Assembly (NCBI RefSeq): GCF_001854805.1
Contig: NZ_MBLO01000063.1
Span: 1 to 34,878, forward strand
From: Pseudofrankia coriaricola
GTDB lineage: Bacteria > Actinomycetota > Actinomycetes > Frankiales > Frankiaceae
Direction: 5' to 3'
Length of the DNA stretch: 34,878 bases
The position numbers and the translations under genes are program-made. Positions within the stretch are counted from its first letter, which is position 1; every line of letters starts with the position of its first letter. The notes below the pieces were generated by a model. That model saw only the letters and a list, made by a program, of their open reading frames with translations. It was not told the origin of the DNA and did no database searches. Below are positions 8,715 through 21,080 of this stretch, piece after piece.

Positions 8715-10109
8715 TCAGCCGCGCAGGGACAGGGTGATGTCGCGGTGGGCCCTGGCGAGAGCGTCAGCGGGGGTGGCCTGACCGCGCAGGGCGAGGTTGA
8801 TGTTGGTGTAGACGGCGCGGCTGATCTCGGGGTAACGCGGAGTGCCGGCTGGCCGGGCGACCGACCGAACGCCACGGGTCACCGAGATCATCGGGCTTTC
8901 GTTGACCAGCGACAGGTCCTCGAGCACGGACCGGTTCGCGGGCATCTGGCTATACCTGGACAGCGTCCGTTGCGCCGGCACGCTGGTCATCCAGTCGACG
9001 AACGTGCGAACCGCGGCAAGCCGGTGGGTATGCGGGTTGACGAACATGCTCCAGCCTCCGATCGCCGAGAATCCAGGGGCCCGCTGGCCCGCGAACGCGG
9101 GTAGCTGGGTCGCGCGGTACTTCTCCGGTTCGGTGTCGAGCGCCGTGTCGGCGGTGTTCCACCCCCGCATGAAGGCGGCCTCGCCATCGTTGAACAGACT
9201 GGTGGCCAGCGGTTCCCGCAGCGTGGTCAGATCTGGGTGGGTGAGGCCCTGCTCCACGAGTCCGCACATGAAGCGCAGCGCCCGGGCGCAGGGCGGCGAG
9301 TCGATCGTCGAACGGGTGACTCCCGGGTCGACGGTGCTCCCGCCGGCGCTGGCGGCGAACTCGGTCCAAACACAGGTCAGCCCCTCGTAGGCGTCACCCT
9401 GCCAGGCGATGCGGTACTCGGCGTGGGCGACGTCGCGCAGCATCCTCGCCGTCTCGGCGAGCTCCTCCCAGGTGGTGGGCGGCGGGCGGCCGACCTGGCC
9501 GAGCAGGTCCGGCCGGTAGTAGAGCACCCCGCGGTTGGCAAAGTAGGGCACCGCGTAGATACGCCCCCGGTACCTGGACGCGGCGAGCGCGGCCGGGTCG
9601 AACCGGTCCCAGAAGGCCGGCTCGAACTCGTCGTCGAGCGGCATCGCCAGCTGGTCCACGGCGAACTCGGCGGGCCAGATCACATCGCCGAGGTAGACGT
9701 CCGGCTCTCCCGTGCCCGACCGCACCAGTTCGATCAGCGCCTGCCGCTTCGCGTCGGTGCTGAACGGCACCAGCCGCAGCTCGACGGTGATCTCCGGATG
9801 CGCCTTCTGGAAGGCGCTGATGAGCACCTGTCGCGAGTCGACCAGGTTCTGGTCGTTCGAGCTGGCCGCCCAGCGCACCCGACGGGAGTCCGGGTCGCCG
9901 ATCGCGCCGCCGTCGTCCCGGAACGCCCGGGACAGCGCCACCCCGCCCGCGACGCCGATCACGACGGTCGCGGCGGCGGCTCGCAGTACGGTCCGCCGGC
10001 TGGGCCACCCCCGCCCGCCGCCGGCGCTGGGGTCCGCATCGTCGGGACGAGCCTGGGCGGCGCCGTGGTCGTCCGGCGCCGGGCTGTTGTTGGGTTCGGG
10101 TTCGCTCAT
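8715..10109 (-). CDS. Tat-anchored extracellular solute-binding protein (family 1)
   Basis: A 464-aa periplasmic-binding-protein fold of the sugar-binding type. After a 35-residue Asp/Pro-rich cytoplasmic lead comes a twin-arginine motif, PSRRTVLRAAAAT, with a hydrophobic segment to about residue 62 and no lipobox, so it is probably membrane-anchored facing out. Typical features follow: AFQKAHPEITVEL, the DVYLGDVIWPAEFA loop, YRGRIYAVPYFANRGVLYYR, TWEELAETARML and GGWSMFVNPHTHR. Its ATG (10109-10107) overlaps the stop of the TIR-STAND-WD40 gene as ATGA and has no evident SD of its own, which implies translational coupling. No permease or ATPase gene is nearby. A sensory role, handing a ligand signal to the coupled protein, is an inference. 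Confidence 0.88.
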   Translation of the reverse strand: MSEPEPNNSPAPDDHGAAQARPDDADPSAGGGRGWPSRRTVLRAAAATVVIGVAGGVALSRAFRDDGGAIGDPDSRRVRWAASSNDQNLVDSRQVLISAFQKAHPEITVELRLVPFSTDAKRQALIELVRSGTGEPDVYLGDVIWPAEFAVDQLAMPLDDEFEPAFWDRFDPAALAASRYRGRIYAVPYFANRGVLYYRPDLLGQVGRPPPTTWEELAETARMLRDVAHAEYRIAWQGDAYEGLTCVWTEFAASAGGSTVDPGVTRSTIDSPPCARALRFMCGLVEQGLTHPDLTTLREPLATSLFNDGEAAFMRGWNTADTALDTEPEKYRATQLPAFAGQRAPGFSAIGGWSMFVNPHTHRLAAVRTFVDWMTSVPAQRTLSRYSQMPANRSVLEDLSLVNESPMISVTRGVRSVARPAGTPRYPEISRAVYTNINLALRGQATPADALARAHRDITLSLRG

Positions 10110-13100
10110 CGACAGGTCTGCCGATAGTCATCGCTCGGCATGTACTGGGACCATTCCTGCTCGGTCAGTGCCGGCCTGGCCTTACAGATCTCGTCGACGA
10201 CTCGCTGCGCATCGATCCACCAGGTCATCAGGTTTCCGTCGTGGTCGGTGGTGATCAGGGAGGAGCCGTCGGCACTGAACGCGACCGCGCTGGCCTCCCG
10301 GCCGGACAGCACCGCATACAGCTCGCCGGTGCCGGCGTTCCAGATTCGGACCGATCCGTCGACGCTCGCGCCCGCGACCAGGGCGGCGTCAGGACTGAAG
10401 GCGACGGACACGACGGCCTGGTCGGTGCCGGTCAGCGTCCGCACTCCGCGCTGCTGGTAAGGCCCGTCCCGGGAGGGCCGGTCGACCGTCCACAGCCAGA
10501 CCGTCCCGTCATCCGACCCACTGGCCACCAGGCCGCCGTCGGCGCTGATCGCCAACGACTTCATCGGACCCGGCCCGCGCAGGTCGACCCGATCCTGGTC
10601 GGCGCCGGCGAGGTTCCACAGCGTCACCCACCCGTCGTCGCTGGCGCTGACCACGCCGCGTCCGTCAGGCATGAAGCGCACCGCGTTGACGGGATTCTCG
10701 TGCCGGTAGATCGGCTCGCCCAGCTGTCCGGTGACCGCGTCTCCGAGATGCACCGTGTTGTCCGTGGCGCCGATGACAACGCGTCCGCCCTCCGGCGCGA
10801 TATCCACCGCGTTGACGACGAAGTTCACCTCGTCGGCACCGCCGCGCGACGAGTCGTCGGTCAGCACTGTCGGCCGCATCGGGTCGCGTGGGTCGAAGAC
10901 GGTGACCGCGTCACCCTGCGATGCCACCAGACGAGATCCGTCCTTGCTGAGGGCCATCGCGTGGGCGGCCCAGGGGCCCTCCGCGGTGAGGACGGGGAGG
11001 GTGTCGCCGGGCGGTCCGATCGAGGTCAGGTAGGCGGGTGGGTCGAGGTCCCACAACCTGATGGTGCGGTCCGTTCCCGCGGTCGCGACCAGTTGGGATC
11101 GTGCCGCCAGCGGGGATCCGGGCCCGGCGGCGGAGCCCGCCACTGAGCCCTCCGCCGCGGCCAGGGCCGACACCGCGACCGAACCGACGGCCGGCGCCCG
11201 GTCCCGCGGCGCCGGCCGGGAGACATGCCACAGCCCGGTCGTCCGGTCGGCGCCCGCACCGATCAACGTTCGCCCGTCCGGGCTGAAGGCCAGGCACAGC
11301 ACGGCCTCGGTCGGCCCGGACAGGGTGGTGAGGCTGGTCTGGGTTCCGACGTCCCAGAGCCGGACCGACCCCTCGTCGCCACCGCTGGCGAGCACGTCGC
11401 CGTCCGGGGAGAAGGCGACCGTGTCCACCGGCCCGGTGTGTCCGATGAACGTCGCGACCGCCGCCGGCCGGGCTGGGTCGGACACCCGCCACAGCCGCAC
11501 CGTCTTGTCATCGCTGCCGACCGCCAACAGGTCCTCCGACGGGGAGAACGCCACGTCGCGGGCCGTGCCAGCCCGTCCGGGCAGCGTCCCGAGCCGCCCT
11601 CCCCCGGACCCGCCGGCCGGACCGAAGGCCGACGTCGTTCCCGCCGGTCTCGGAGTCGTCAGCGCCGTGGGATCCCAGAGGGACACGGTGTCATCGGCGC
11701 CCGCGGCCGCCAGCGCGGCGCCGTCCCGGCTGAACGCCACGGTGTCCACGGGCCCGGGACCGACCCGGACGACCGCCCGCTGCGTGAGCGTCGGCGTCTC
11801 GAGCAGATAGAGGTTCCCGTCCGCGGAGGCCACCGCCAGCAGGCCGCCGCGGGGATCGAACGCCACCTTGTTGACCGCCTCGCCGGATCCGGGACGCCGG
11901 TGCACCACGGTTCGGCGCTCGACGTCCCACAGGCTGACCGTGCCGTCCTGCTCCCCCGTGGCGAGCAGCCGGCCGTCCGGGCTGAAGGCCACGGTGTAGA
12001 CCGGCGTGTCATGGCTCAGCGTCGTCACCGGCGGCCGCCGGGTCGACGTCGTGTCCCACACCCGTACCCCACCGGTGTGGTCGGCGGTGGCCAGCAGGTG
12101 CCGGTCGGACGGGGCGAAGGCGAGCGCGTGCACCGGGGCGGCGGACCGGGCGAACGTATCGGCGTAGTAGGTCCCCTGCACGCTGAGCAGGTTGCCGCGG
12201 GCCTGCACGGTGGGCGCCATCCGGTAGGCCTCGATGCTGAGCAGCAACGCGACGCGCGGGTCGCTCTGGCGGAGCGTGACCGCTTCCTGGATCAGTCCAC
12301 GGCTGACCGCGAGCCGTCGCTCACGCATCGCCGACTGGCTCGTCACGGAGGCGACCGCGGCCCCGATCAGTGCCATCACCAGCAACGAGGCCAGGATGGC
12401 GATCGCCTGCGCGCGCAGCTGGCGGTCGCGCCGGACGCTCGCCCGGAGGAACTCGACCGCGTCCGCGCTCAGGTCGGTGGTCGCCGCCGCGGACTGGCTG
12501 GTGCGACGGGCCCGTCGGCCGGGCCACCGCGCCAGACCCGACGGCGAGCGCATCCGCGGTCCGAGCCCTCCGGGCCGGGCTCCCGGCCGGTCAGGACTCG
12601 CCGCGGCGGCCGGGCCGGCCCCGGGGCCGGCGGTGAGGAAGGCACGCAGCTGAGGACGGGTCCACAGCAGCGACCTGGGCCGCCCGGCCTCCCGCCACCG
12701 CGTCGCATCACGCTCGATCTCGCGGCGCTGGCGCAGCCCGTCCGCCTCGGATCTGATCCGCTCCGCCAGCGGCGGCCAGGTGGTCACGAACGCCTCGTGC
12801 GCGATGCTGAGCTCGATCCGGTCACCTATCACGTCCGTCGTGACCAGCCGGTGAGCGACGAATGGCTCGAGATGCGCCCGCTGGGTCGGGGTGAGGCTGG
12901 CCCGATCCACGCGTTCCCGGACCATCAGGCCGCCGCTGTCGAGCGTGACCAGCCGCAGCAGGGTGGTCAGCACCTGGGCCTTGGTGACGCCCGCTGGCTG
13001 CGCGGCTCGCGCCAACGCCCGGTCCGCCTGGTGGATGATGGCGTCGCGCACTCCCCCCAGCCGGTGGTACGCGTCCGTGGTGATCTCGCCACCCCGGTCC

Positions 13101-14275
13101 AGATCCGTGGCCAGTTTCCACAGGATGAAGGCCAGCAGGGGCAGGGCCGTTCCGGTCTCGGTGTCGGAGATCATCTCGGCCAGCAGGCGATTGTCGATCT
13201 TGATGCCGGCCTCGCGCGCCGGCCCCTCGATCACCGTCCGCAGCGCGTCGCGGGACAGCGGGTCCAGCGAACGCATGGTCACCGGCAGGTCGCGCAGCGC
13301 CGGATCCGACCGCAGCAGTCCGACGTACTCGGACCGGAACGCGCCGACGATCTGCAGGCGCGACCCCAGGGAGCCGGCGACCAGCGCACCGAACCGGGCC
13401 CGCCCCTGCTCCGAGGTGCTGACCAGCAGCTCCTCGAACTGGTCGATCGAGATCAGCAGATGGTCACAGGACGGTCTCGCTCGCAGCACCTCGTCGACGA
13501 GGTCGAGGAACGACCGTTGGTCGTTCAGGCGTGCTCGCACGTCCTCGCGCCGCCAGCCCAGCCCCAGCACGTCCGACGCCGCGGCGAAGGCGTTCGCCAG
13601 CGCACCGACCGGGTCGACACCCGGGGTGAACGCCGGCAGCGCACGCCACCCCTGCCGATCGAGCACCGCCGGCCGGACGCCGGCTTTGAGCAGGGACGAC
13701 TTTCCGACCCCCGACGGTCCCGAGATGAGCACTATCCGGCCGTCGCCGGCAACCGACGCGGTGAGCAGGCTGAGGACGTGCTGGGTGTCGTCGTCCCGGC
13801 CGAAGAAGACCGCCCTGCGGTCGTCCGCGAACGCCTCCAGTCCCGGATACGGATTGCGGCCCGCGGCCCAGCCGCGGCCGCTGCCCAAATCGACCCGGAC
13901 CAGTTCGTCGACCACAGCCTCGACCGCCCCGTCCGGGTCGGCGACATAGTCGAGATAGTGCAGCGAGCCCAGCAGCGGAAGTTCGACGCCCTTTTCGACC
14001 TGTAACGGCAGCACGACCGCGCCACGGGATCGGGCGACGGCCACCTCCGCCAGGCACCAGTTCGACGCCACGGACGAAGAGGTGATCACGGCAACAAGTG
14101 CGTCCGCCGCCCGCAGCTCGCGGTAGAGCCGCTTTTCCCATTCCTCGCCGATCCGTATTCCCCGGTCGTGCGCGGTGTCGAGGAAGACGTCATGGCCGGC
14201 GGCGACAATCTTTTTGCGAAGCAACTGCCCAACGACGGCGTCCCCGCGTGCGTAGCTAATGAAAACCCTCGCCAT
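10106..14275 (-). CDS. TIR-STAND(nSTAND1)-TM-WD40 protein
   Basis: A 1389-aa multidomain protein. ATG 14275 has GGAGGAG 5-6 nt upstream; an earlier in-frame start at 14320 lacks this. Residues 2-128 form a TIR domain (ARVFISYARGD, FLDTAHDRGIRIGEEWE, SNWCLAEV). Glu77 in WCLAE is at the position of the NADase glutamate of enzymatic TIRs. NPYPGLEAF and VFFGRDDD mark the start of an nSTAND1 NTPase with Walker A GPSGVGKSS (186-194) and Walker B LLISIDQFEEL. A hydrophobic span (ILASLLVMALIGAAVASV, about 625-645) should cross the membrane. About 14 WD-type repeats (roughly 715-1389) could make two seven-bladed propellers. The layout fits STAND-type defence or signalling proteins that sense through WD40 repeats and act through TIR. 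The solute-binding gene is coupled downstream. Confidence 0.93.
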   Translation of the reverse strand: MARVFISYARGDAVVGQLLRKKIVAAGHDVFLDTAHDRGIRIGEEWEKRLYRELRAADALVAVITSSSVASNWCLAEVAVARSRGAVVLPLQVEKGVELPLLGSLHYLDYVADPDGAVEAVVDELVRVDLGSGRGWAAGRNPYPGLEAFADDRRAVFFGRDDDTQHVLSLLTASVAGDGRIVLISGPSGVGKSSLLKAGVRPAVLDRQGWRALPAFTPGVDPVGALANAFAAASDVLGLGWRREDVRARLNDQRSFLDLVDEVLRARPSCDHLLISIDQFEELLVSTSEQGRARFGALVAGSLGSRLQIVGAFRSEYVGLLRSDPALRDLPVTMRSLDPLSRDALRTVIEGPAREAGIKIDNRLLAEMISDTETGTALPLLAFILWKLATDLDRGGEITTDAYHRLGGVRDAIIHQADRALARAAQPAGVTKAQVLTTLLRLVTLDSGGLMVRERVDRASLTPTQRAHLEPFVAHRLVTTDVIGDRIELSIAHEAFVTTWPPLAERIRSEADGLRQRREIERDATRWREAGRPRSLLWTRPQLRAFLTAGPGAGPAAAASPDRPGARPGGLGPRMRSPSGLARWPGRRARRTSQSAAATTDLSADAVEFLRASVRRDRQLRAQAIAILASLLVMALIGAAVASVTSQSAMRERRLAVSRGLIQEAVTLRQSDPRVALLLSIEAYRMAPTVQARGNLLSVQGTYYADTFARSAAPVHALAFAPSDRHLLATADHTGGVRVWDTTSTRRPPVTTLSHDTPVYTVAFSPDGRLLATGEQDGTVSLWDVERRTVVHRRPGSGEAVNKVAFDPRGGLLAVASADGNLYLLETPTLTQRAVVRVGPGPVDTVAFSRDGAALAAAGADDTVSLWDPTALTTPRPAGTTSAFGPAGGSGGGRLGTLPGRAGTARDVAFSPSEDLLAVGSDDKTVRLWRVSDPARPAAVATFIGHTGPVDTVAFSPDGDVLASGGDEGSVRLWDVGTQTSLTTLSGPTEAVLCLAFSPDGRTLIGAGADRTTGLWHVSRPAPRDRAPAVGSVAVSALAAAEGSVAGSAAGPGSPLAARSQLVATAGTDRTIRLWDLDPPAYLTSIGPPGDTLPVLTAEGPWAAHAMALSKDGSRLVASQGDAVTVFDPRDPMRPTVLTDDSSRGGADEVNFVVNAVDIAPEGGRVVIGATDNTVHLGDAVTGQLGEPIYRHENPVNAVRFMPDGRGVVSASDDGWVTLWNLAGADQDRVDLRGPGPMKSLAISADGGLVASGSDDGTVWLWTVDRPSRDGPYQQRGVRTLTGTDQAVVSVAFSPDAALVAGASVDGSVRIWNAGTGELYAVLSGREASAVAFSADGSSLITTDHDGNLMTWWIDAQRVVDEICKARPALTEQEWSQYMPSDDYRQTCR

Positions 14276-14333
14276 CGGGCTCCTCCACACCGGGTCGCGG
14301 TATCCCGCGGGCGAGACCATATCGTCCCGCCGA

Positions 14334-19465: not shown

Positions 19466-20746
19466 TCAGCCGGCGCGGACAGCCGCCAGCGTGGTGCCTC
19501 GGCGAGCGAGAGCCTCTTCGACGCGCCGCTGCATGTGCGCGATCAGCGCATACTGGTCCGCGCAGTACACCGTCGGATTGGTGTACGCGCCGTGAGACCG
19601 GTAGCGGTGCGGGAACAGCCCGGCACCGCAGGTCGTCACCACCTCGCAGCCGCGGCAACTCTCGGCCAGCCCATGCAGCCCGAGCTGCCGCTGGACGAAT
19701 GCTGGCACGTCGAACAGGGCATCGAGCGGATCGGCAAACACGGTGCGTCCGCTGGCAGCGGCACCCTGGCCGACCGCCTTCATGGTGTCCACCTGCTCGT
19801 AGGAGCCGTCGGACTCAATGACGACGAGCGCCACCGGGGCGAGGCCGAACGACTCGTGCGCGCCCACGCCCCCGAGCAGCAGATGGAGCAGCGACTCGAA
19901 AGTGCGCACCGACAGTGGCCGCACCGGCGCGTCGAACCAGCGGTCGAACAGCGGGATCAGCCAGTCGGCGTAGGGAGTCCGGCCGTCGCCCGGTGCCAGG
20001 CCCGGTGGCGGGAGTTCCCAGGTGCCGTGCGGGAGCAGGAAGTCGACCCCGCCCGCGTCGAGGCCGAGCAGGGCCTCCCACACCCGGACCGGGTCGGCCG
20101 CCAGCTGGATGGTGCACAGCAGCCCGAGAAAGTGCGAACTGAACTCGGGCCGCTGCATCATCTGGATGCCCGCGATGACCTCGTCATAGCTCGACCGGCC
20201 GTCGCCGTAGGTGCGGTGCAGGTCGTTAGCCTGCCGGTCGCCATCCAGACTGATCCCGACACCGATGTCCTCCTCGACCAGGAAGGCGGCCATCGACTCG
20301 CCGAGCAGCACGCCGTTGGTCTGCACCGTGACGATGACCTCGGTCAGCGGGGCGAGGCGCTCCCGCAGCGCGCCGACGATCCGGCGCAGCCGCTCACGGC
20401 CCGCGAGCAGCGGCTCGCCGCCGTGCAGCCGGATGTTGACGAACTCCAGGTCGTGAGTGCGCACGTGTTCGGCGATGCGGTCCGCTGTCGCGGCAACGGT
20501 CGCGTCCGCGATGAACCGTGGCTGCGCCCGCCAGGACTGGTCGGCCAGGTGGTAGACGTAGCAGTAGTCACAGTCGAGGTTGCAGCGCGAGGCCACCTTC
20601 AGCACGAACTCGCGAAACGGTGTCGGAACCCATCCCGACGGCAGCGGCGCGCCCCACGCCGCGGCGGCGCGTTCCGCCGCGGTCGGAGCCGCGCCAGCAT
20701 GCGCCGAGGCCCGGGCCGGCGCAGGCCACGGCAGCGCGGCGGGCAT
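19466..20746 (-). CDS. fxsB: FxsB-family radical SAM/SPASM cyclophane-forming peptide maturase
   Basis: A 426-aa radical SAM enzyme. EFVLKVASRCNLDCDYCYVY contains the CxxxCxxC cluster motif (Cys55, 59, 62). HGGEPLLAG and ISLDG are the SAM-binding motifs. A C-terminal SPASM region has CRGCEVVTTCGAGLFPHRY and VYCAD for auxiliary clusters. These strings are characteristic of FxsB-family enzymes, which join an aromatic side chain to a residue two positions away in a precursor peptide (3-residue cyclophanes). The ATG is 6 bp after the stop of a 67-aa candidate precursor, with GGAGG directly against it, so coupling is likely. About 40 Ala/Pro-rich residues precede the domain. The family call is firm. 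The usual FxSxx-ending substrate is absent; the product is unknown. Confidence 0.93.
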   Translation of the reverse strand: MPAALPWPAPARASAHAGAAPTAAERAAAAWGAPLPSGWVPTPFREFVLKVASRCNLDCDYCYVYHLADQSWRAQPRFIADATVAATADRIAEHVRTHDLEFVNIRLHGGEPLLAGRERLRRIVGALRERLAPLTEVIVTVQTNGVLLGESMAAFLVEEDIGVGISLDGDRQANDLHRTYGDGRSSYDEVIAGIQMMQRPEFSSHFLGLLCTIQLAADPVRVWEALLGLDAGGVDFLLPHGTWELPPPGLAPGDGRTPYADWLIPLFDRWFDAPVRPLSVRTFESLLHLLLGGVGAHESFGLAPVALVVIESDGSYEQVDTMKAVGQGAAASGRTVFADPLDALFDVPAFVQRQLGLHGLAESCRGCEVVTTCGAGLFPHRYRSHGAYTNPTVYCADQYALIAHMQRRVEEALARRGTTLAAVRAG

Positions 20747-20752
20747 CCTCCG

Positions 20753-20956
20753 TCAGTTCTTGGCGTCTGTCAGCTGGGAAGCCGCCGCGGACACCGACCG
20801 GCGCGGGCGGAACAGGCACGGGCCCGAGTTGTGCACATAGGCACCGCTCACCAGGTCACCGTCCGCGGAATTCCGACGGACGAGTGCGTGGTCGAGCGCC
20901 GACAGGTCGACCCCGATGCTCGCTGGGTCGACCGGCGTCACGACGGAGTTGAACAT
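20753..20956 (-). CDS. Candidate RiPP precursor peptide for the FxsB-type enzyme
   Basis: A 67-residue frame starts at ATG 20956, with AGGGGG about 7 nt upstream, and ends 6 bp before the radical SAM start. Size, strand and position are those of a RiPP precursor. The first ~35 residues are leader-like (VDPASIGVDLSALDHALVRR). The rest has a Gly/Ser-rich break, then AYVHNSGPCLFRPRRS, and a C-terminal SVSAAASQLTDAKN. Aromatic residues with partners two positions away are Tyr40-His42, His42-Ser44 and Phe49-Pro51, all possible cyclophane sites. Cys47 is the only cysteine. It does not end in FxSxx, although residues 2-6 read FNSVV. I do not recognise the peptide family. Confidence 0.7.
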   Translation of the reverse strand: MFNSVVTPVDPASIGVDLSALDHALVRRNSADGDLVSGAYVHNSGPCLFRPRRSVSAAASQLTDAKN

Positions 20957-21080
20957 GGCATACCCCCTGCAGCCCGACCATCAACGGCCAGCACGACCGT
21001 TACTTGGTCGTCGCGCAGCCCTACAGGAGCAGTCTCGCACGGTGGTGGACCGTATTCGCCCGGATCCAGGTTTTCCGCCG

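What the first reader, a model, noticed from the sequence alone, without database searches (positions are those of the whole stretch)
20753..20956. A 67-aa candidate precursor for an FxsB-type radical SAM enzyme without the FxSxx C-terminus
Seen: a small frame with a good SD stops 6 bp before an FxsB-type gene. Known: FxsB substrates normally end in FxSxx at the carboxyl end. Here the peptide ends SQLTDAKN, and its aromatic residues sit in AYVHNSGPCLFRP. Inferred: this is a precursor of a different cyclophane RiPP class, with Tyr40, His42 or Phe49 as possible crosslink donors. If the family is new, so is the product.
Basis: partly seen in the sequence, partly recalled or inferred. Interest (0 to 1): 0.82.

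Follow-up and report, generated by a model that had tools for sequence, protein, structure and literature searches.

The report
New peptide partner for FxsB-type enzyme
A small conserved peptide gene of Frankia-type bacteria travels with a radical SAM enzyme from a family known to tie peptides into rings, but it lacks the family's usual FxS ring site and keeps a Tyr-x-His-Asn-Ser segment instead, so it probably yields a ring-bearing peptide of a new sequence type.

Summary
The 67-aa frame (20956-20753, minus) ends 6 bp before an enzyme over the NCBIfam FxsB cut-off (469 vs 370 bits). The peptide is in 6 of 35 Frankiaceae genomes held, own included, each time directly before an enzyme ortholog 76-89% identical to the window's; all other homologs found are 52% or less. 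The block SAL.HAL.RR...GAY[VA]HNSGP..F.PR is under purifying selection. The six enzymes form one clade (100/100), beside the main FxsB group (joining fork only 88/61). Peptide and enzyme are a portable unit: their usual site is empty in relatives and one genus has the unit elsewhere. In 3 of 6 genomes a convergent DUF4062-NTPase-TPR gene, found in no other family genome searched, adjoins. The HExxH hydroxylase domain, seen at 33 of 35 other FxsB homolog loci, is absent at all 6. Most likely a triceptide-like precursor with its ring within Tyr40-Ser44; His42-Asn43-Ser44 sits at the FxS position, but that register is weakly supported. No chemistry was tested. New variant of a known kind.

The parts
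20753..20956 (-). precursor peptide gene, 67 aa
   Evidence: conserved in 6 of 35 family genomes; purifying selection
20963..20968 (-). AGGGGG, ribosome-binding-site-like element of the peptide gene
   Evidence: AGGG(G/A)G in all six orthologs
20801..20902 (-). conserved block, residues 19-52 (putative leader plus core)
20819..20845 (-). GAYVHNSGP, residues 38-46, putative core
   Evidence: pN/pS 0.056
20825..20833 (-). His42-Asn43-Ser44, preferred candidate for the three-residue ring
   Evidence: register (weak); invariant in six
19466..20746 (-). radical SAM/SPASM maturase of an FxsB-related clade, 426 aa
16735..19371 (+). convergent DUF4062-NTPase(NB-ARC-like)-TPR gene (open frame from 16411); optional third member of the unit
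   Evidence: 3 of 35 family genomes, each time beside the pair

Best explanation
The 67-aa gene encodes the precursor of a triceptide-like RiPP, and the adjacent FxsB-related radical SAM/SPASM enzyme is its maturase. Residues about 19-36 (SALxHALxRR...) act as recognition leader, GAY[VA]HNSGPxxFxPR holds the core, and the last ~13 residues are a dispensable tail. The enzyme is expected to join an aromatic side chain to the beta carbon of the residue two positions on (-2 Da per ring). Most likely site: His42-Asn43-Ser44, which lies where FxS lies in FxsA (about 0.45); next Tyr40-x-His42 (about 0.27). Shown: gene pair, conservation, co-mobility, enzyme family, absence of the core Phe and of the HExxH hydroxylase. 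Inferred: leader function, modification, its site, any cleavage, and the role, perhaps a signal or toxin of a conflict system given the NTPase-TPR partner in half the loci.
For: Peptide directly before the enzyme in 6 of 6 genomes with the clade enzyme; protein-level conservation strongest in GAYVHNSGP; enzyme over the FxsB cut-off with all radical SAM and C-terminal cluster-region cysteines kept in 6 of 6; closest solved structure is ChlB, 1.8e-78, called a multiple cyclophane synthase in a reference title seen; unit present or absent as a whole at the vWA site and elsewhere in G017; His serves as ring donor for HaaB and YhhB (review PMC11002830, passages); an FxsA of the same genus (G006, L030, 43 bits on TIGR04268) has His-Thr-Ser at the FxS position and then His-Asn-Ser.
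Against: No biochemical evidence. Leader homology to FxsA is not established: no TIGR04268 match for the three peptides tested; leader-only matrix not significant and preferring another register; best local matches reached by 85-104 of 300 shuffles; hhalign probability 2.7, E 0.017. The 27-column match that puts HNS at FxS is reached by 13-60 of 2000 shuffles, includes the core columns and was built with L030 in it. All six genomes are close kin, so invariance of a residue says little about its role. In G004 no ATG, GTG or TTG lies between the peptide's stop and the enzyme's cluster motif.
Confidence: 0.6

Rival explanations
1. Same precursor-enzyme pair, but the ring joins Tyr40 to the beta carbon of His42 (Tyr-x-His), as YxdB and YhhB act on Tyr-x-x motifs.
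For: Tyr40 and His42 invariant; Tyr donors known for YxdB and YhhB (passages); the leader-only matrix shifts the core column towards AYV (residue 39), not HNS.
Against: The 27-column register puts His42, not Tyr40, at the Phe of FxS in all six; His as ring acceptor is not among the cases in the passages seen.
Confidence: 0.27
2. The ring is at Phe49-x-Pro51 (or Phe49 to another residue) and the HNS block is only recognition sequence.
For: Phe49, Pro51 and Arg52 invariant in six; Phe is the usual FxsB donor.
Against: Proline as acceptor is not among the cases in the passages seen; the lowest pN/pS was measured for GAYVHNSGP, though Phe49-Arg52 was not measured alone.
Confidence: 0.08
3. The peptide is not a substrate but a regulator or partner of the enzyme or of the NTPase-TPR protein.
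For: Direct proof of modification is lacking; the unit contains a STAND-like gene in 3 of 6 genomes.
Against: Gene order (small peptide, then 3-CyFE-type enzyme) matches FxsA/FxsB and YhhA/YhhB pairs in the same genome; conserved aromatic-x-x motifs.
Confidence: 0.08
4. The pair is a decaying remnant of an FxsA/FxsB system without function.
For: FxS and the hydroxylase are missing; the G004 enzyme frame lacks an ordinary start codon.
Against: Peptide pN/pS 0.19 and enzyme dN/dS 0.11-0.18 (0.26-0.29 for pairs with G004), cluster cysteines intact in six of six.
Confidence: 0.04

Closest known systems
FxsA/FxsB (FxSxx-COOH) systems, TIGR04268/TIGR04269
   Same: Enzyme over the TIGR04269 cut-off; small peptide gene beside it; related systems in the same genomes; TPR/NTPase partner type.
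   Different: No FxS, no TIGR04268 match in the three peptides tested, separate enzyme clade, no HExxH hydroxylase domain at 6 of 6 loci against 33 of 35 others.
YhhA/YhhB and ChlB (fused rSAM-HExxH)
   Same: Family of related cyclophane enzymes; Tyr and His ring donors; YhhA ends SYDRMHHRHNRS with aromatic-x-Arg motifs.
   Different: YhhB score 355 is under its cut-off 445; no fused hydroxylase domain; core is Tyr-x-His-Asn-Ser, no YhhA match; YhhB rows branch apart (100/100).
HaaA/HaaB/HaaT and ScaB
   Same: Ring from a His side chain (review passages); the window's TPR protein matches HaaT in part, 271 bits.
   Different: Core is His-Asn-Ser, not His-Ala-Ala; HaaT cut-off is 1125 bits and AfsR scores higher (302), so the TPR gene is no HaaT; HaaB itself could not be placed in the tree.
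Actinobacterial peptide-processing modules of conflict systems (Kaur et al. 2020, PMC7159879)
   Same: rSAM, small peptide and ATPase with C-terminal TPRs (section read).
   Different: Their four peptide types are FxSxx, RxD, acidic and FtsH-associated; this is none of them by motif, and the zincin-like (HExxH) gene is missing.

Membership tests
FxsB maturase (TIGR04269) | score over the curated cut-off (370 bits) | tested here: met
   469.2 bits; not exclusive, a YhhB of the same genome scores 450
FxsB maturase (TIGR04269) | falls within the main FxsB clade | tested here: not met
   own clade 100/100 outside the 34-row FxsB group (100/98); joining fork 88/61; three further FxsB-like rows, one with an FxS peptide (L026), lie outside both
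FxSxx-COOH precursor (TIGR04268) | match to the model, FxS at or near the C-terminus | tested here: not met
   no match at E<=10 for 3 of the 6 peptides tested; no FxS in any of six
FxSxx-COOH system | HExxH hydroxylase domain near by | tested here: not met
   0 of 6 loci, window and five stretches of about 20 kb; 33 of 35 other homolog loci have it
YhhA/YhhB | enzyme over 445 bits, YhhA peptide | tested here: not met
   355.1 bits; no NF041705 match for the window peptide while the model recognises three YhhA peptides
HaaA/HaaB | His-Ala-Ala core with HaaB-type enzyme | tested here: inconclusive
   no HAA in the six peptides; HaaB sequence not at hand; presence of a HaaA model in the library not checked
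Triceptides (three-residue cyclophanes) | C-C bond from an aromatic ring to the beta carbon two residues on | not testable with these tools
   needs MS and NMR

The most novel reading that the evidence does not exclude
The invariant Tyr-x-His-Asn-Ser segment is crosslinked twice by one enzyme, Tyr40 to His42 and His42 to Ser44, so that one histidine is both acceptor (beta carbon) and donor (imidazole): a fused bicyclic cyclophane from overlapping three-residue motifs, made by a hydroxylase-free, portable precursor-maturase(-NTPase) unit of Frankiaceae.
Probability: 0.1. Interest if true: 0.78.

Novelty: new variant of a known kind. Interest (0 to 1): 0.52.

Why it matters
An enzyme that the standard model scores as FxsB belongs to a distinct clade with a different substrate, so automatic annotation would call it an FxSxx maturase and probably miss the peptide. 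If the ring is at His-Asn-Ser or Tyr-x-His it adds a sequence type to the triceptides, and the pair is small enough for a simple co-expression test. The link with an NTPase-TPR gene bears on the open question of what such peptides do in actinobacterial conflict systems.

Tried and rejected
Thioether at Cys47: not general, Cys is Ala in G004. MoxR-like AAA and vWA genes upstream as parts: rejected, vWA is in 24 of the 25 family genomes and also where the unit is absent. DUF885 downstream in G001, G004, G005 as leader peptidase: rejected as a specific part, it follows vWA directly in G003, which has no unit; a search for HExxH in the three proteins found none. Leader homology to FxsA: tried by model scan, matrix, local matches and hhalign, not established. 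Wider relatives: the genome-contig scan gave 158 candidate stretches and 3 confirmed loci, all in genomes already seen; it used leader patterns, so a relative with another leader could be missed. Profile A1 in 396 genomes of the phylum: 69 with a match at E<=0.1, only the own genome strong, the next 24.7 bits, not inspected one by one. Family search: two weak hits (G014, G020) were read and show no resemblance. Plasmids: 11 records, none over 60% identity. AlphaFold model of the enzyme with 7 sequences: mean pLDDT 53, not used. The count of C-terminal FxSxx (13 of 41) includes antisense and in-gene frames and is not used; its look for Y.HN-like blocks gave only one unrelated frame (L023) among the 35 other homolog loci. 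Precursors of those 35 loci: 15 FxsA-type peptides were collected, some with FQD or HTS in place of FxS, L023 shows FNSFI, four more give weaker profile hits (L031, L036, L049, L055); for the rest none was found in the stretch held. Literature: eight searches listed no paper on this peptide; the primary triceptide papers are not held, so earlier notice there cannot be excluded. PMC3023750 passages gave nothing used.

Full report
Observation. The frame at 20956-20753 (minus) is as described: 67 codons, ATG start, AGGGGG upstream, stop six bases before the ATG of the next gene. That gene (20746-19466) scores 469 bits on TIGR04269 (SAM_SPASM_FxsB, cut-off 370) and 355 on YhhB (cut-off 445). The peptide matches no NCBIfam family at E<=10 and no Pfam family at E<=1; two orthologs (G001, G004) also match no NCBIfam family at E<=10. 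The library does recognise such short precursors: FxsA-type peptides as TIGR04268 and YhhA peptides as NF041705.

Conservation. Of 146 genomes around the window's own, 6 hold the peptide, own genome included. A profile search of the 35 family genomes held finds the same 6 at E 3e-29 or better; the next best (E 9e-4, 22 bits) and a second weak one were read and show no resemblance. Three of the six are named in genome contigs: Parafrankia soli, Pseudofrankia asymbiotica and Frankia nepalensis; their contig lengths equal those of G017, G005 and G004. In all six the peptide lies directly before the enzyme. Invariant positions: S19 A20 L21 H23 A24 L25 R27 R28 S30 D32 D34 V36 G38 A39 Y40 H42 N43 S44 G45 P46 F49 P51 R52. 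Pooled pN/pS is 0.19 over residues 19-52 and 0.056 over residues 38-46, so the protein is what is kept. The N-terminus and the Ser-rich tail vary, and the G004 peptide lacks the last 13 alignment columns.

Enzyme clade. The five orthologs are 76-89% identical to the window's enzyme; the next homologs are 52% or less both in the relatives search (38 of 146 genomes with a match at E<=1e-60) and in the class search (48 of 393 at E<=1e-110). In a tree of 46 enzymes the six form one clade (100/100, stem 0.52) outside a 34-row FxsB group (100/98); the fork joining the two has only 88/61, and three further FxsB-like rows lie outside both, one of them (L026) with an FxS peptide. So loss of FxS within a wider FxsB family is plausible but not shown. 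The cluster cysteines are kept in six of six; some positions conserved in 37 FxsB rows differ in all six, notably R176 to Leu and D214 to Gln; ChlB, the closest solved structure (9gm3, 1.8e-78), also has Leu at the first. The Parafrankia copy (other genus) falls among the Pseudofrankia-group copies inside a 100/99 fork that leaves out G004, which suggests transfer.

A portable unit. In five genomes the pair follows a vWA (CoxE-like) gene and precedes DUF885 (G001, G004, G005) or the NTPase-TPR gene and DUF4349 (G000, G002). The vWA gene is in 24 of the 25 family genomes. In G003 DUF885 follows vWA directly with no unit; G006 and the vWA site of G017 have none either, while G017 holds peptide, enzyme and a convergent DUF4062-NTPase-TPR gene elsewhere. 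That third gene occurs in 3 of 35 family genomes at E<=1e-100 (G000, G002, G017), each time beside the pair. MoxR, vWA and DUF885 are neighbours, not parts.

How it differs from FxSxx systems. The own genome also has a canonical FxsA (...AIAGFKSSI) with FxsB and an HExxH gene on contig C125, and a YhhA/YhhB pair on C44. Of 35 other homolog loci 33 show an HExxH-domain match (E<=1e-3) in the stretch held; the six here show none, nor do the window and five stretches of about 20 kb. All 27 FxsA peptides printed keep the core Phe (27 of the 30 loci; three matches inside frames of 757 codons or more were left out), though four of them have no S two residues on. One more FxsA of the same genus, G006 L030, has His-Thr-Ser there and then His-Asn-Ser.

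Where the ring may be. From the S of SAL, His42 lies 23 residues on, as do the Phe of FxsA L025 and the His of L030 (counted on the sequences). An ungapped 27-column matrix of 16 FxsA-type peptides puts HNS of all six at FxS, but 13 to 60 of 2000 shuffles score as well; the leader columns alone are not significant (105 to 1195 of 2000) and prefer another register. Best local matches of three peptides are reached by 85-104 of 300 shuffles, their summed scores by 5-38 of 300; hhalign gives E 0.017, probability 2.7. I hold His42-Ser44 at about 0.45, Tyr40-His42 at about 0.27, both at about 0.1, Phe49 at about 0.08.

Comparison. The review PMC11002830 (passages) reports His C2 to Ala beta bonds by HaaB, Tyr C3 to Asp beta by YxdB, and Tyr- and His-to-Arg bonds by YhhB. 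ChlB is called a multiple cyclophane synthase in a reference title seen in PMC12636437 (passages), which also reports that HExxH domains formerly taken for peptidases hydroxylate such peptides. Kaur et al. (PMC7159879, passages, section read) describe modules with rSAM and TPR ATPases and four peptide motifs, none of which is this one, and suggest the peptide is a toxin or signal. The papers that define triceptides could not be read; a 2022 ACS Chem. Biol. paper on actinobacterial FxsB-type maturases is recalled, not seen.

Verdict. The finding is sound and passes its own main test. It is best called a new variant of a known kind: a conserved, mobile precursor-maturase pair in a clade beside FxsB, without FxS and without the hydroxylase. 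The chemistry is unproven.

Noticed in passing
L044:16043-16400 (G004, Frankia nepalensis): Peptide and enzyme share one frame with a single TGA between them, and no ATG, GTG or TTG lies between that stop and the enzyme's cluster motif, yet the enzyme frame is intact and constrained (dN/dS 0.26-0.29). How it is translated is unclear.
   Followed up: partly
L030/L096 (G006:C1:4130184-4130312): An FxsA-type peptide (43 bits on TIGR04268) with HTS at the FxS position followed by HNS, beside an FxsB homolog: a possible His-x-Ser variant of FxSxx.
   Followed up: partly
L095:1321-3452 (G005:C92): FxsA-like peptide (24.7 bits, under the cut-off) ending FGGYRRRR, followed by an HExxH hydroxylase-type gene; no FxsB paralog besides the new-clade enzyme was found in this genome at E<=1e-60.
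   Followed up: partly
L046:4500-6964 (G000:C44) and L045 (G000:C125): The window's genome also carries a YhhA/YhhB pair (43 and 451 bits, both over cut-off) and a canonical FxsA/FxsB pair, so three such systems coexist.
   Followed up: yes
window 10106-14320 (-): 1404-aa protein with nSTAND1 NTPase and WD40 repeats and a TIR-like N-terminus (weak match to ThcB4 of Thoeris), near the unit; relation not tested.
   Followed up: no
L063, L080, L081, L083, L085, L088: FxsA-type peptides of Frankiaceae with further residues after FxS, about 43 in L088.
   Followed up: no
L070, L073, L089, L072: FxsA-model matches with FVN, FIN or FDA instead of FxS: other core variants in the FxsB family.
   Followed up: no
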